A stretch of DNA of 64,000 nt, taken from positions 3,100,001 to 3,164,000 of the forward strand of contig NZ_LT629772.1 in NCBI RefSeq assembly GCF_900105385.1, in the 5' to 3' direction. How positions within the stretch are numbered: position 1 is the stretch's first letter; each line of letters begins with the position of its first letter. Made by a program: the position numbers and the translations under genes. This DNA is from Microlunatus soli. Lineage in GTDB: Bacteria; Actinomycetota; Actinomycetes; Propionibacteriales; Propionibacteriaceae. The notes beneath the pieces are model-generated. The model was not told the DNA's origin, made no database searches, and saw only the letters and a program-made list of their open reading frames with translations. This document shows positions 16,263 through 19,971 of this stretch, piece by piece.

Positions 16263-16661
16263 TCAGGACCGGACCAGCCGGGCGATGGCCTGTGATGCTT
16301 CCTTCAGCTTGGCGTCGGCGTCGTCTCCGCCGGACCGCACCGCCTCGGCAACACAATGATCAAGATGGTCGTCCAACAGCCCGAGCGCGACCGACTGCAG
16401 TGCACTGGTCATCGCCGAGACCTGGGTGAGGACGTCGATGCAGTACTTCTCTTCCTCGATCATTCGTTGCAGGCCGCGGGCCTGCCCCTCGATCCGGCGC
16501 AGCCGTTTGAGATATTCGGCCTTGTGGTTGTGGGTCAGGTAGCCGTGCTGATGAGCGGTCGCCTCCTCGGCGCCGGCCTCGCCGGAAGCCCCCGTCGTCG
16601 CGCTGGCGGGCAACTCGGCAATGTCATCGCGGATCTCGGTGCTGTCGGTCGGTGGCGTCAT
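16263..16661 (-). CDS. csoR: copper-sensing transcriptional repressor CsoR
   Basis: A 132-residue CsoR-family repressor. The all-helical core begins at about residue 46 (HKAEYLKRLRRIEGQARGL). The Cu(I) ligand pattern is intact: Cys74 (KYCIDVLTQ), His99 and Cys103 (DDHLDHC), with the same 25- and 4-residue spacings as characterised CsoR proteins. An N-terminal extension of about 40 residues includes several His (HQHGYLTHNH) that might add a metal site. A palindromic operator lies directly upstream at 16690-16704, suggesting autoregulation. Confidence 0.93.
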   Translation of the reverse strand: MTPPTDSTEIRDDIAELPASATTGASGEAGAEEATAHQHGYLTHNHKAEYLKRLRRIEGQARGLQRMIEEEKYCIDVLTQVSAMTSALQSVALGLLDDHLDHCVAEAVRSGGDDADAKLKEASQAIARLVRS

Positions 16662-16689
16662 CGGTGCTCCTCCTGGTCATCGCACAGCA

Positions 16690-16704
16690 TACCCCTCCGG
16701 GGTA
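16690..16704. promoter_or_regulatory. CsoR operator
   Basis: TACCCCTCCGGGGTA: perfect 6-bp arms TACCCC/GGGGTA around TCC, matching the C/G-tract palindrome known for CsoR operators. It sits 29 nt upstream of the csoR start codon. Confidence 0.75.
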
Positions 16705-16815
16705 ATGAAGGAAGATGCCGCCCGGTCCGGACCCGGCCGGCGGTCGCCGACCTCGGCCAACCGATCAAATGTCGACAAACCGATCAGTTCCCCCAGTTGT
16801 TACGTTGTCCGATGG

Positions 16816-17064
16816 TTATCCCCAACCCCCGTGGATAAAGCACAGCGCGACCGGATCTGTCAACCTGGCGACGGCCGACCTCCGGTGGCCGGGAAATCTC
16901 TACGACTTCTTTTCGTCCACCGATCGTGGCCACTGTTACCCCTAGTCAGGGGATGTTTTCCGTTCGAGGTCAAGGGTTATCCCCAGGTCTGTACGCACCC
17001 GGTGCACAACCGAACAGCGTGTCTCCACAGTGCATCCGGCGTTGTCCACACCCCCTGTGGATAA
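16816..17064. promoter_or_regulatory. cluster of DnaA boxes upstream of dnaB
   Basis: Within 249 bp: TTATCCCCA (16816-16824), TTATCCACG on the minus strand (16830-16838), TTATCCCCA (16977-16985), TTGTCCACA (17042-17050, the actinobacterial consensus) and TTATCCACA on the minus strand (17056-17064, the general consensus). The last two face each other with a 5-bp spacer. A locally A+T-richer patch lies at 16894-16918. It could be an origin-like element, a DnaA titration site, or a DnaA-controlled dnaB promoter. Confidence 0.65.
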
Positions 17065-17215
17065 CGGGCTTTTCAGACCGCGACTCCGGGGCGTACGTTG
17101 ACGACACTTGCTGAACGTCGCCGCCGTGTTCCGGGGTGCTCGAGATCACGACACGCATCGGGGAATGCGTGCTGCTCGGGTGGGACTGTCGGGGCCGGGA
17201 CTTACAGTGCCAAGA

Positions 17216-17239
17216 GTGAATGACAGCCATGTCATTCAC
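17216..17239. promoter_or_regulatory. perfect 10-bp hyphenated palindrome before dnaB
   Basis: GTGAATGACA and its exact reverse complement separated by GCCA, 36 bp before the dnaB start. It could be an operator or an RNA hairpin in the dnaB leader. Confidence 0.6.
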
Positions 17240-17274
17240 GATGTGACCAGCGACTGTGTGGGGGAGGAAGTTCG

Positions 17275-19971
17275 GTGAGTCTGGCGGAGGTCAACACGCC
17301 GTTCGGCGACGAGGACGACCGCGGGCGCGGCAGCGGCTCGGCGCCCGACCGGACGCCACCGCAGGATCTGATGGCCGAGCAGTCGGTGCTCGGCGCGATG
17401 TTGATGAGCAAGGACGCCATCGCCGATGTCGTCGAGGTGCTCCGCGGCCCGGACTTCTATCGACCGTCCCACGAGCTCGTCTACGACGCGATCCTCGACC
17501 TCTACGGCCGTGGTGAGCCGGCCGACGCGATCACCGTGGCAGCCGAGCTCACCAAGCGGGGCGACATCGGCCGGGTCGGCGGGGCGCCCTACCTGCACGA
17601 TCTGCTGGCCAGTGTGTCGATCGCGGCCAACGCCGGCTACTACGCCGAGATCGTCCGGGAGAAGGGGATCCTGCGCCGGTTGGCAGACGCTTCGATCCGG
17701 ATCGGCCAGTCGGCCTATGCCGCCGAGGGCGACGTCAACGACATCGTCGACCGTGCCCAGGCCGAGGTGTATTCGGTCACCGATCAGCGCACCAGCGAGG
17801 ACTACAAGTCGCTGTCGGAGCTGATGCAGCCGACGATGGACGAGATCGAGGCCATCGGATCGCGGGGCGGCCAGTTGGCCGGCGTACCGACCGGATTCGC
17901 CGACCTGGACGACCTGACCAACGGCATGCACCCCGGGCAGATGATCATCGTCGCTGCGCGTCCCGGCATGGGCAAGGCGCTCGCGCTGGACACTCCGCTG
18001 CCGACCCCGGACGGCTGGACGACGATGGGGCAGGTCGCCGTCGGTGATCAGCTGATCGGGGCCGACGGACGACCGACGCGGGTGCTGGCCGCGACCGAGG
18101 TGATGACCGATCGGGAGTGCTTCGAGGTGGTCTTCTCCGACGGCACCCGGGTGGTGGCCGACGCCGGGCACGAGTGGCAGGTGACCGAGCCCGCCGCCCG
18201 CCGAGCGGCCGGATCCCGATCGGCGCCGGACGATGCCGCCGTGCGACGGGTCCTGCTGGCGGCCGCGCAGGCGCAGCACCGACCGGAGAACTATCTCCCC
18301 GGCCCGGACCTGGTGGCCGAGATCGGTGCGGAGTTCCACGGCACCGTGCAGTCGGTGCTGCGGCAGATCGGCCCGGCGGTCGCCGTCCGGTCCACCGCGA
18401 CCACCGACCAGACGGCGGCGGCGACGACCGAGTGTCGGGTGGTTTATCCGCGCAACCGGACGCTGTCCTGCGTTGCAGCTCGGCTGACGGCAGGCGATCG
18501 CCCCGAAATCAGATCCGCCGAGACGGTCACCACCGCCGAGTTGTCCCGTCGGCTCCGCGCGGCCGGTGGCCGACGCTGGTCAGTGCGGACCACCGACCCG
18601 GTGGCCGGCCGGCAGCGGGACCTGCCGCTGCCGCCGTACGCGTTGGGTGCTTGGCTCGGAGACGGGCACCCCGAGGCCGCGCGGCTCAGCTCGGCCGATC
18701 CTGAAGTGCCGGCCCTGATCGCCGAGACCGGGGTGCCGGTGGACCGGCTCTCCGGTCTCAGCTGGGCCCTGCTCGAACCCCGATCCGACGGCCGCCCGCC
18801 GGCCGCCGGCAGGACCGGCTCGTTGCGCCCGATGCTGCGCAGGCTCGGTGTGCTGGGCGCCAAGCACATTCCCGCCGACTACCTGCGAGCCTCGATCGGC
18901 CAGCGCCGCGACCTGCTCGCCGGTCTGTTGGACACCGCGGGCTGGGTCGCCGACAGCGGCAATGTCCGGCTGGCCGTTGCCGACCGACGGCTCGCCGACG
19001 ACGCCTACGAGCTGATCACGTCGCTCGGCTACCGCTGCCGCCGACGGACCTCGGCCGCCGACGGCGGCACGATCGAGGTGCTCAGCCTGCAGGCAGCCGA
19101 CGACGTGTTCCGGCTGCCCCGTAAACGTGATCATCACCGATCCCGACGGATCAGCGATCCGGCGCGGGCCGGTCGACGGCAGATCGTCGCGGTTCGGCCG
19201 CATGCCGGTGTCCCGGTGCGTTGTGTGCAGGTCGACAATCAAGATCATCTTTACCTCGCGACCCGATCGATGATCCCGACCCACAACAGCACGATCGGGT
19301 TGGACCTGGCCCGTTCGGCGTCGATCAAGAGCGGCTTGGCGTCGGCGATCTTCTCCCTGGAGATGAGCCAGATCGAGATCGTGATGCGACTGCTCTCGGC
19401 CGAGGCGAGCATCCCGCTGAATCACATCCGCAACGGCAAGATGAACGACGACGACTGGCAGCGGATGGCCAAGAAGATGGGCGAGGTCGCCGAGGCGCCG
19501 CTGTTCATCGACGACTCACCGAACCTGACCATGATGGAGATCAGGGCCAAGGCACGTCGGCTGCGGCAGCGGCACGATCTGAAGTTGATCATCATCGACT
19601 ACCTGCAATTGCTCACGTCGGGCAAGAAGGTCGAGTCCCGCCAGGTCGAGGTCTCCGAATTCTCCCGTCAGCTCAAGCTGCTGGCCAAGGAACTCGAGCT
19701 ACCGGTGATCGCGCTGGCCCAGCTGAACCGTGGACCGGAGACCCGTGGCGGCGACAAGAAGCCGATGCTGTCCGACCTGCGTGAGTCCGGCTCCCTGGAG
19801 CAGGACGCCGACATGGTGATCCTGCTGAATCGTCCCGACATCTACGACAAGGAGTCCGAACGGGCCGGCGAAGCCGACTTCGACGTCGCCAAGCACCGAA
19901 ACGGGCCCACCAAGACGATCACCGTCGCCTTCCAGGGCCATTACTCCCGATTCATCGACATGCACCACTGA
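17275..19971 (+). CDS. dnaB: replicative DNA helicase DnaB, interrupted by an intein
   Basis: An 898-codon gene whose extein sum is 461 residues, the normal length for the hexameric helicase that unwinds the replication fork. N-terminal domain: PPQDLMAEQSVLGAML; RecA-like domain: GMHPGQMIIVAARPGMGK, then after the intein STIGLDLARSA, IFSLEMS, KLIIIDYLQLL, LAQLNRG, SDLRESGSLEQDADMVI. The intein sits inside Walker A between Lys and Ser, so no active helicase can form without splicing. GTG 17275 has GGAGG about 7 nt upstream. Unlike many actinobacteria, dnaB here is not next to rplI/ssb/rpsF. Confidence 0.97.
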   Translation: MSLAEVNTPFGDEDDRGRGSGSAPDRTPPQDLMAEQSVLGAMLMSKDAIADVVEVLRGPDFYRPSHELVYDAILDLYGRGEPADAITVAAELTKRGDIGRVGGAPYLHDLLASVSIAANAGYYAEIVREKGILRRLADASIRIGQSAYAAEGDVNDIVDRAQAEVYSVTDQRTSEDYKSLSELMQPTMDEIEAIGSRGGQLAGVPTGFADLDDLTNGMHPGQMIIVAARPGMGKALALDTPLPTPDGWTTMGQVAVGDQLIGADGRPTRVLAATEVMTDRECFEVVFSDGTRVVADAGHEWQVTEPAARRAAGSRSAPDDAAVRRVLLAAAQAQHRPENYLPGPDLVAEIGAEFHGTVQSVLRQIGPAVAVRSTATTDQTAAATTECRVVYPRNRTLSCVAARLTAGDRPEIRSAETVTTAELSRRLRAAGGRRWSVRTTDPVAGRQRDLPLPPYALGAWLGDGHPEAARLSSADPEVPALIAETGVPVDRLSGLSWALLEPRSDGRPPAAGRTGSLRPMLRRLGVLGAKHIPADYLRASIGQRRDLLAGLLDTAGWVADSGNVRLAVADRRLADDAYELITSLGYRCRRRTSAADGGTIEVLSLQAADDVFRLPRKRDHHRSRRISDPARAGRRQIVAVRPHAGVPVRCVQVDNQDHLYLATRSMIPTHNSTIGLDLARSASIKSGLASAIFSLEMSQIEIVMRLLSAEASIPLNHIRNGKMNDDDWQRMAKKMGEVAEAPLFIDDSPNLTMMEIRAKARRLRQRHDLKLIIIDYLQLLTSGKKVESRQVEVSEFSRQLKLLAKELELPVIALAQLNRGPETRGGDKKPMLSDLRESGSLEQDADMVILLNRPDIYDKESERAGEADFDVAKHRNGPTKTITVAFQGHYSRFIDMHH
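17977..19287 (+). other. class 3 intein with degenerate LAGLIDADG endonuclease in dnaB
   Basis: 437 residues (DnaB codons 235-671) between GMGK and STIG of the P-loop. It begins with Ala rather than Cys/Ser and ends in THN before Ser+1. The class 3 signature W-C-T is complete: Trp67 of the intein in block B (HEWQV), Cys416 in block F (RCVQVDN) and Thr435 in block G (PTHN). The central region is a LAGLIDADG endonuclease: motif 1 ALGAWLGDG keeps its Asp, but motif 2 LLAGLLDTAG has Ala where the second catalytic Asp should be. Splicing should work; homing probably does not. Confidence 0.9.

What the first reader, a model, noticed from the sequence alone, without database searches (positions are those of the whole stretch)
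16816..17064. Cluster of DnaA boxes about 200-460 bp upstream of dnaB
Five DnaA-box-like nonamers lie in 249 bp, including the exact actinobacterial TTGTCCACA and the exact general TTATCCACA facing each other 5 bp apart. Such nonamers are rare in DNA of this composition. No dnaA, dnaN, parA or ribosomal protein genes are nearby, so this is not the textbook oriC context. It may be a relocated or second origin, a DnaA titration locus, or a DnaA-controlled promoter tying helicase supply to initiation.
Basis: partly seen in the sequence, partly recalled or inferred. Interest (0 to 1): 0.72.

Follow-up and report, generated by a model that had tools for sequence, protein, structure and literature searches.

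The report
DnaA-controlled promoter of dnaB helicase
The cluster of binding sites for the replication starter protein DnaA is real, but it is most likely the control region of the neighbouring helicase gene rather than a replication origin, and a similar layout recurs in many members of one class of bacteria.

Summary
In detail: six DnaA-box-like nonamers (two exact) lie in the 613-bp gap between ricR/csoR and dnaB. In the 29.8% of the genome sampled, only this site and the dnaA-dnaN region exceed 3 boxes per 300 bp.

It is unlikely to be the origin. dnaA and dnaN lie 59-67 kb away, and the GC-skew minimum of the scanned 2.70-3.42 Mb falls 2 kb from a second box cluster between them.

The cluster goes with dnaB: 97 of 114 non-redundant loci of the class have at least 3 boxes upstream of dnaB. 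A -10 hexamer (TANNNT) sits at a fixed distance downstream of a box in 73 of 114, against a mean of 2.7 in shifted controls; upstream of dnaN in 0 of 24. A PafBC (DNA-damage) promoter motif is found in 65 of 114.

Best reading: DnaA binds beside RNA polymerase at promoter P1 and activates dnaB; a damage-inducible promoter P2 lies downstream. DnaA binding upstream of dnaB is published for mycobacteria (PMC7738170). I did not find the shared, phased architecture in the papers searched. A side role in DnaA titration is not excluded.

The parts
16770..16778 (-). DnaA-box-like nonamer TTGTCGACA (1 mismatch)
   Evidence: also seen in L049, L051, L058
16816..16824 (+). DnaA box TTATCCCCA (1 mismatch), first member of the distal inverted pair
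16830..16838 (-). DnaA box TTATCCACG (1 mismatch), starts 14 bp after its partner
16913..16921 (+). weak box TCGTCCACC (2 mismatches); its TCCACc core is largely conserved in the 14-locus alignment
16977..16985 (+). DnaA box TTATCCCCA (1 mismatch), 65 bp upstream of the proximal pair; ++ spacing of 64, 65, 66 bp in 29, 26, 23 of 110 loci
17001..17009 (-). weak box (2 mismatches); TGCACA core largely conserved in the 14-locus alignment
17021..17029 (+). weak box GTCTCCACA (2 mismatches) inside the conserved block GCGTGTCtcCACA
17042..17050 (+). exact DnaA box TTGTCCACA, promoter-proximal inverted pair
17056..17064 (-). exact DnaA box TTATCCACA, promoter-proximal inverted pair; +/- starts 14 bp apart in 44 of 110 loci
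17094..17099 (+). predicted -10 hexamer TACGTT of promoter P1, 29 bp after the box pair
17187..17208 (+). predicted promoter P2: PafBC (RecA-NDp) motif TGTCGG-N10-TACAGT
   Evidence: motif as given in PMC8151990
17275..19971 (+). dnaB, replicative helicase, interrupted by an intein-like insert (898 aa)

Best explanation
The cluster is the DnaA-responsive control region of dnaB. DnaA binds the array, and the promoter-proximal inverted pair (predicted about -64 to -42) places DnaA next to RNA polymerase at promoter P1 (-10 TACGTT at 17094-17099), where it most likely activates transcription, so helicase supply follows initiator activity. About 110 bp further down lies a second promoter, P2, with the PafBC/RecA-NDp motif, so dnaB can also be raised after DNA damage. 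Shown here by sequence: boxes, conservation, fixed spacing, the PafBC motif, and a PafC-type gene with a WYL partner in the genome. Inferred: DnaA binding in this organism, the transcription starts, and the sign of regulation (activation).
For: Conservation: at least 3 boxes (at most 1 mismatch) in the 800 bp upstream of the DnaB match in 91 of 106 relatives' loci (27 of 29 unnamed, 64 of 77 named; some genomes occur in both sets), 4.9-5.2 per kb against 0.14-0.15 per kb in the rest of the same loci; 14 of 16 further class members; 97 of 114 after removing near-identical upstream regions, this locus included.

Geometry: TANNNT at 28/29 bp after a (-) box or 42/43 bp after a (+) box in 73 of 114 loci, against a mean of 2.7 and a maximum of 9 in 500 shifted controls. 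In the 50 loci with an inverted pair it is at 28 or 29 bp in 39 and at 38/39 bp, about one helical turn more, in 8. Upstream of dnaN the same test gives 0 of 24 (20 of these have at least 2 boxes).

P2: motif in 65 of 114 loci, 0 in the reversed and 0 in the antisense control. HTH_PafC-WYL-WCX protein with an adjacent WYL-WCX partner in the genome.

Published (passages only): DnaA binds upstream of dnaB in vitro (M. tuberculosis) and at the homologous region in vivo (M. smegmatis), and a DnaA variant that binds the dnaB promoter less also under-expresses dnaB (PMC7738170). M. tuberculosis dnaB is described as partially dependent on PafBC after mitomycin C (PMC8151990). DnaA can activate E. coli nrdAB by stabilising RNA polymerase at the promoter (PMC8203912).
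Against: No binding, transcript or expression data exist for this organism in what I could search. The -10 is predicted from spacing alone. In 27 of 123 loci no TANNNT sits at the tested distances and in 17 of 114 there are fewer than 3 boxes, so the exact geometry is not universal; loci are related by descent, and removing near-identical ones only took 123 to 114. The peaks at 53 and 63 bp after (+) boxes partly reflect neighbouring tandem boxes 10-11 bp apart. Repression would give a similar footprint.

For P2: the motif was found in only 3 of the 16 further class members and in none of three Streptomyces records, L133, L144, L145 (a fourth record labelled Streptomyces, L094, has it). NCBIfam named neither of the two WYL proteins. 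In PMC8151990 dnaB stayed overexpressed with RecA removed and PafBC knocked down, and a putative SOS box is named there, so damage control may not be PafBC alone.
Confidence: 0.78

Rival explanations
1. A DnaA titration (or nucleotide-exchange) locus, like datA/DARS or the Streptomyces box clusters: it soaks up DnaA after the origin-proximal region has been copied and thereby limits re-initiation; its place next to dnaB is incidental. (As an accompanying effect it does not exclude the best explanation.)
For: High box density near the origin. dnaB lies 38-122 kb from dnaN in all 14 relatives in which both matches fall on one contig without wrapping (of 23 relatives with a dnaN match; 3 have them at opposite contig ends, 6 on different contigs), so the boxes double early in each round. 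Clusters of this kind near Streptomyces oriC are recalled from a 2006 J Bacteriol paper that the library does not hold.
Against: A pure sink needs no fixed distance to a -10 hexamer, yet the distance is fixed in 73 of 114 loci. The cluster stays with dnaB although the upstream gene differs: ricR/csoR here, P-type ATPase, MatE, EspG family or LysM protein elsewhere.
Confidence: 0.35
2. DnaA represses rather than activates P1 (or switches sign with its nucleotide), as described for E. coli dnaA and nrdAB.
For: The array is large and ends only 29 bp from the predicted -10. PMC8203912 reports both signs for DnaA (passages).
Against: The proximal pair ends upstream of the core promoter, at about -42, rather than over it. 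In M. tuberculosis reduced binding went with lower dnaB expression (PMC7738170, passages).
Confidence: 0.2
3. A relocated or second chromosomal origin.
For: Box density equals or exceeds that of the dnaA-dnaN cluster (6 against 5 per 300 bp).
Against: Cumulative GC-skew minimum of 2.70-3.42 Mb is at 3,052,758, about 2 kb from the dnaA-dnaN cluster and 64 kb from this one; skew is negative in 44 of 50 sampled segments left of it and positive in 43 of 51 right. AT-richest 30 bp is 63% inside the dnaA-dnaN cluster against 57% here, outside the cluster. 20 of 24 loci have at least 2 boxes within 1.5 kb upstream of dnaN (this genome has 1 there, its cluster lying 4.4 kb off).
Confidence: 0.03
4. 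Chance accumulation of box-like nonamers.
For: Boxes are not over-represented genome-wide: 899 against 1082 for the reversed pattern.
Against: About 35-fold enrichment at the same place in 106 relatives' loci and recurrent spacings.
Confidence: 0.01

Closest known systems
DnaA-bound region upstream of dnaB (Rv0057) in Mycobacterium tuberculosis and M. smegmatis (PMC7738170, passages)
   Same: Same gene and same class of bacteria; DnaA sites upstream of dnaB; binding shown there by IDAP-seq and ChIP-seq.
   Different: Here only sequence evidence. The fixed box-pair to -10 geometry and the spread over the class are not in the passages read.
DnaA-regulated dnaB of Caulobacter crescentus (Hottes 2005, as cited in PMC8203912, passages)
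   Same: Predicted DnaA boxes upstream of dnaB; dnaB counted in the DnaA regulon.
   Different: Other phylum; architecture not compared here.
E. coli nrdAB promoter (activation by DnaA, PMC8203912, passages)
   Same: Works like it in the proposed model: DnaA at upstream boxes stabilises RNA polymerase.
   Different: Different gene; geometry not compared here.
PafBC / RecA-NDp promoters of actinobacteria (PMC8151990, PMC8223512, PMC6789036; passages)
   Same: P2 fits TGTCGG-N10-TA-N3-T exactly.
   Different: Damage induction not tested in this organism.
Streptomyces coelicolor DnaA-box clusters near oriC (2006 paper, recalled, not held)
   Same: Box clusters outside oriC, near the origin.
   Different: Whether one of them lies at dnaB could not be checked.

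Membership tests
DnaA-controlled dnaB promoter (mycobacterial type) | Cluster of DnaA boxes directly upstream of dnaB | tested here: met
DnaA-controlled dnaB promoter (mycobacterial type) | A promoter next to the boxes | tested here: inconclusive
   By sequence only: -10 hexamer at conserved offset; no transcript data
DnaA-controlled dnaB promoter (mycobacterial type) | DnaA binds there in vitro or in vivo | not testable with these tools
   Shown in mycobacteria only (PMC7738170, passages)
DnaA-controlled dnaB promoter (mycobacterial type) | dnaB expression depends on DnaA | not testable with these tools
   Needs reporter or depletion data
Chromosomal origin oriC | DnaA-box cluster | tested here: met
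Chromosomal origin oriC | Lies at the GC-skew minimum | tested here: not met
   Minimum of the contiguous 2.70-3.42 Mb is 64 kb away
Chromosomal origin oriC | AT-rich unwinding element in the cluster | tested here: not met
   No 30-bp stretch of 16661-17275 above 57% AT; 63% at dnaA-dnaN. A modest difference
Chromosomal origin oriC | dnaA-dnaN context | tested here: not met
   59-67 kb away; another box cluster lies there
DnaA titration / datA / DARS locus | Dense DnaA boxes outside oriC | tested here: met
DnaA titration / datA / DARS locus | Loss changes initiation frequency | not testable with these tools
   Needs a box-mutant strain
PafBC (RecA-NDp) promoter | TGTC(G/A)G-N10-TA-N3-T upstream of the gene | tested here: met
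   17187-17208; 65 of 114 loci, controls 0
PafBC (RecA-NDp) promoter | pafBC present in the genome | tested here: met
   HTH_PafC+WYL+WCX protein beside a WYL+WCX protein (Pfam); NCBIfam gave no name to either
PafBC (RecA-NDp) promoter | Induced by DNA damage through PafBC | not testable with these tools
   Needs transcripts

The most novel reading that the evidence does not exclude
Through much of the class Actinomycetes dnaB is driven by a dedicated promoter in which DnaA acts as a positioned activator: an inverted DnaA-box pair sits at a fixed, helically phased distance from the -10, stands in for a -35 element, and makes helicase supply a direct output of initiator activity, often with a PafBC promoter beside it as a damage override. 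The same boxes also sequester DnaA as soon as the origin region is copied, so one site would couple helicase supply to control of re-initiation.
Probability: 0.4. Interest if true: 0.68.

Novelty: new member of a known kind. Interest (0 to 1): 0.52.

Why it matters
DnaA as a transcription factor is known from a limited set of genes and species. Here sequence comparison gives a predicted DnaA-dependent promoter with base-pair geometry, repeated in many members of a class, at the gene for the helicase that works with DnaA at initiation. That makes an open question, whether and how DnaA contacts RNA polymerase to activate, directly testable by moving the boxes half or whole helical turns. It also offers a reason for the DnaA peak upstream of dnaB in mycobacterial binding maps, and suggests that helicase supply is wired both to initiation and to DNA damage.

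Tried and rejected
Origin reading: rejected on skew, AT content and the dnaA-dnaN cluster.

Chance: rejected by conservation. The first count was wrong for the minus-strand loci; it was redone with orientation fixed.

Link to the upstream gene ricR/csoR: rejected as the cause, since the neighbour varies. Upstream ORFs of 10 of the 80 named loci were scanned: 5 had a Pfam match and 5 none; ORFs were picked by length in 11 loci, so some without a match may be spurious.

Reach outside the class: 13 loci of other classes were fetched, out of 193 genomes with a match of which 16 besides this one are of the same class. One (L199) has only 32 bp upstream; of the other 12, 1 has at least 3 boxes and 4 at least 2. 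The cluster is not a phylum-wide rule in this small set.

Other places with two exact boxes close together (379.4, 712.7 and 4996.3 kb): no third box within 300 bp; not followed beyond a look at the sequence and ORFs.

Limits of the sets: one search gave loci for 29 relatives of the 37 with a match (G014 and G021 had none); one search kept the best 80 of at least 573 relatives. L100, L141 and L151 (less than 300 bp upstream) were left out of the counts (summary lines). A shuffle control begun did not run; it was done. The alignment print was cut in the middle.

Literature: searches listed no paper whose title, abstract start or passages seen describe a conserved DnaA-box/-10 architecture upstream of dnaB; the library lacks most subscription journals.

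Full report
What was checked. They occupy the gap between a RicR/CsoR-type repressor gene (16263-16661, minus) and dnaB (17275-19971, plus). In 2.005 Mb of the same chromosome (29.8%, not a random sample) sites with at most one mismatch occur at 0.146 per kb, and only this site and one other exceed three per 300 bp. Genome-wide the nonamer is not over-represented (899 sites against 1082 for the reversed pattern), so the concentration here is local.

Where the origin is. The genome is one contig of 6.73 Mb and the window is 3,100,001-3,164,000. dnaA is at 3,056,299-3,058,110 and the dnaN domain matches at 3,049,549-3,050,196, both on the minus strand. Between them lie genes of an ABC transporter, which look like an osmoprotectant uptake system by eye and were not scanned, and a second box cluster at 3,054,558-3,054,807. 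The cumulative GC-skew minimum of the contiguous stretch 2.70-3.42 Mb is at 3,052,758. Sampled segments are negative left of it (44 of 50) and positive right of it (43 of 51); three of the four segments beyond 6.4 Mb, about opposite, are negative again. Per-segment skew is weak and noisy near the minimum, so the position alone could be off by tens of kb. The keto measure had its minimum elsewhere, at 2,929,225, also not at dnaB; I take it as noise but report it. The AT-richest 30 bp is 63% inside the dnaA-dnaN cluster and 57% in the dnaB region, outside its cluster. Taken together the finding is 62 kb from the likely origin and is most probably not an origin.

Conservation. DnaB-encoding loci came from 40 genomes including this one (unnamed; 30 loci), from named genomes (the best 80 of at least 573; the nearest is Microlunatus endophyticus) and from 198 genomes of the phylum (29 further loci). 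With orientation corrected, at least three boxes lie in the 800 bp upstream of the DnaB match in 91 of 106 relatives' loci and at least two in 103 of 106; density 4.9-5.2 per kb against 0.14-0.15 in the rest of the same loci. In 16 further members of the class 14 have at least three; of 12 usable loci of other classes 1 has. After removing near-identical upstream regions, 97 of 114 loci (this one included) have at least three and 111 at least two. The upstream gene differs: MatE transporter in a Streptomyces and a Nanopelagicales bin, a heavy-metal P-type ATPase in Enemella, an EspG-family gene in Amycolatopsis, a LysM protein in Microlunatus kandeliicorticis. The cluster thus goes with dnaB.

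Spacing. Recurrent distances are +/- starts 14 bp apart (44 of 110 loci) and ++ starts 64, 65 or 66 bp apart (29, 26, 23 of 110). In the window both occur: 17042/17056, and 16977 to 17042. In a 14-locus alignment further blocks are conserved around these boxes, and two TA-N3-T elements follow them (print cut in the middle).

Promoter P1. In the 50 loci with an inverted pair 14 or 15 bp apart (this one and some near-duplicates included), TANNNT begins 28 or 29 bp after the pair in 39, 38 or 39 bp after it in 8, and at neither in 3; the reversed hexamer occurs 4 times in all. For all loci, using either box of the pair as anchor, 81 of 123 have it at the basic distance, 15 more only about one helical turn further, and 27 at neither. 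On the non-redundant set the basic distance holds in 73 of 114 against a mean of 2.7 and a maximum of 9 in 500 circular shifts; with one more turn allowed 88 of 114 against 5.0 (maximum 11). Upstream of dnaN, where DnaA boxes also occur (at least 2 in 20 of 24 loci, none in 2), 0 of 24 loci show it. In the window the hexamer is TACGTT at 17094-17099, 29 bp after the pair. If it is the -10, the pair spans about -64 to -42, where activators that contact RNA polymerase commonly sit (general knowledge). The change of distance by a whole turn in some lineages is what a contact on one face of the helix predicts. Part of the ladder of distances after (+) boxes comes from tandem boxes 10-11 bp apart in the same loci, so the 15 loci with only the longer distance are the cleaner evidence. 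The loci are related by descent, which the shifts do not correct for.

Promoter P2. TGTC(A/G)G-N10/11-TA-N3-T occurs within 400 bp upstream of the DnaB match in 68 of 107 loci, antisense 0, and with N10 in 65 of 114 non-redundant loci, both controls 0. It is the PafBC motif as printed in PMC8151990 (passages). In the window it is 17187-17208. In the 2.0-Mb sample the motif occurs 21 times against 6 for its reversed form. The genome has a protein with the HTH_PafC domain next to a second WYL-WCX protein, the expected pafBC pair, though NCBIfam named neither. Only 3 of 16 further class members have the motif, and three Streptomyces records lack it (L133, L144, L145).

Published support, from passages only. 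PMC7738170 reports that DnaA of M. tuberculosis enriches five regions, one upstream of dnaB, that ChIP-seq in M. smegmatis finds homologs of the same five, and that one DnaA variant binds the dnaB promoter less and under-expresses dnaB. PMC8151990 reports that dnaB was overexpressed even with RecA removed and PafBC knocked down, yet partially dependent on PafBC, and names a putative SOS box there. PMC8203912 reviews DnaA as activator and repressor, including predicted boxes upstream of Caulobacter dnaB. None of the passages describes a class-wide architecture; the searches were made, in an open-licence library only.

Mechanism proposed. DnaA occupies the exact pair first and the flanking weaker sites as its level or ATP form rises; from the pair it contacts RNA polymerase at P1 and raises dnaB transcription. 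Binding and sign are inferred from mycobacteria; the geometry is shown here by sequence. Because the site is copied soon after initiation (dnaB lies 38-122 kb from dnaN in 14 of 14 relatives with both on one contig and no wrap), its boxes may also dampen re-initiation by holding DnaA; nothing here tests that. After damage P2 would supply helicase independently of DnaA.

Verdict. A real and very probably functional element, most likely the DnaA- and damage-controlled promoter region of dnaB. The kind is known; this member, its recurrence in the class and its fixed geometry add to it.

Noticed in passing
genome 3,050,200-3,056,300 (L005 10200-16300): The usual dnaA-dnaN neighbourhood is split by several genes (ABC transporter, a methyltransferase-like and a VOC-like ORF, by eye), with the oriC-like box cluster about 4.4 kb from dnaN; the three closest relatives (L208-L210) also have 0-1 box within 1.5 kb of dnaN, so the split may be shared.
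   Followed up: partly
16690-16704: TACCCCTCCGGGGTA, a palindrome just upstream of the ricR/csoR gene, with TACCCCCCTAGGGTA in the upstream region of several relatives: a likely operator of that repressor.
   Followed up: partly
17275-19971: DnaB carries an insert between its helicase halves that weakly matches an intein-containing family (22 bits, below that family's cut-off).
   Followed up: no
genome 379,418-379,457 and 712,699-712,737 (L177, L237): Two apparently intergenic places share the arrangement box-(about 10-12 bp)-CTCGAAGCG-box with exact DnaA boxes 30-31 bp apart, one of them upstream of an rpsB-like gene (by eye); perhaps a small repeated element.
   Followed up: partly
genome 4,996,324-4,996,373 (L238): Another pair of exact boxes, 41 bp apart in the same orientation, apparently near the start of divergent genes.
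   Followed up: no
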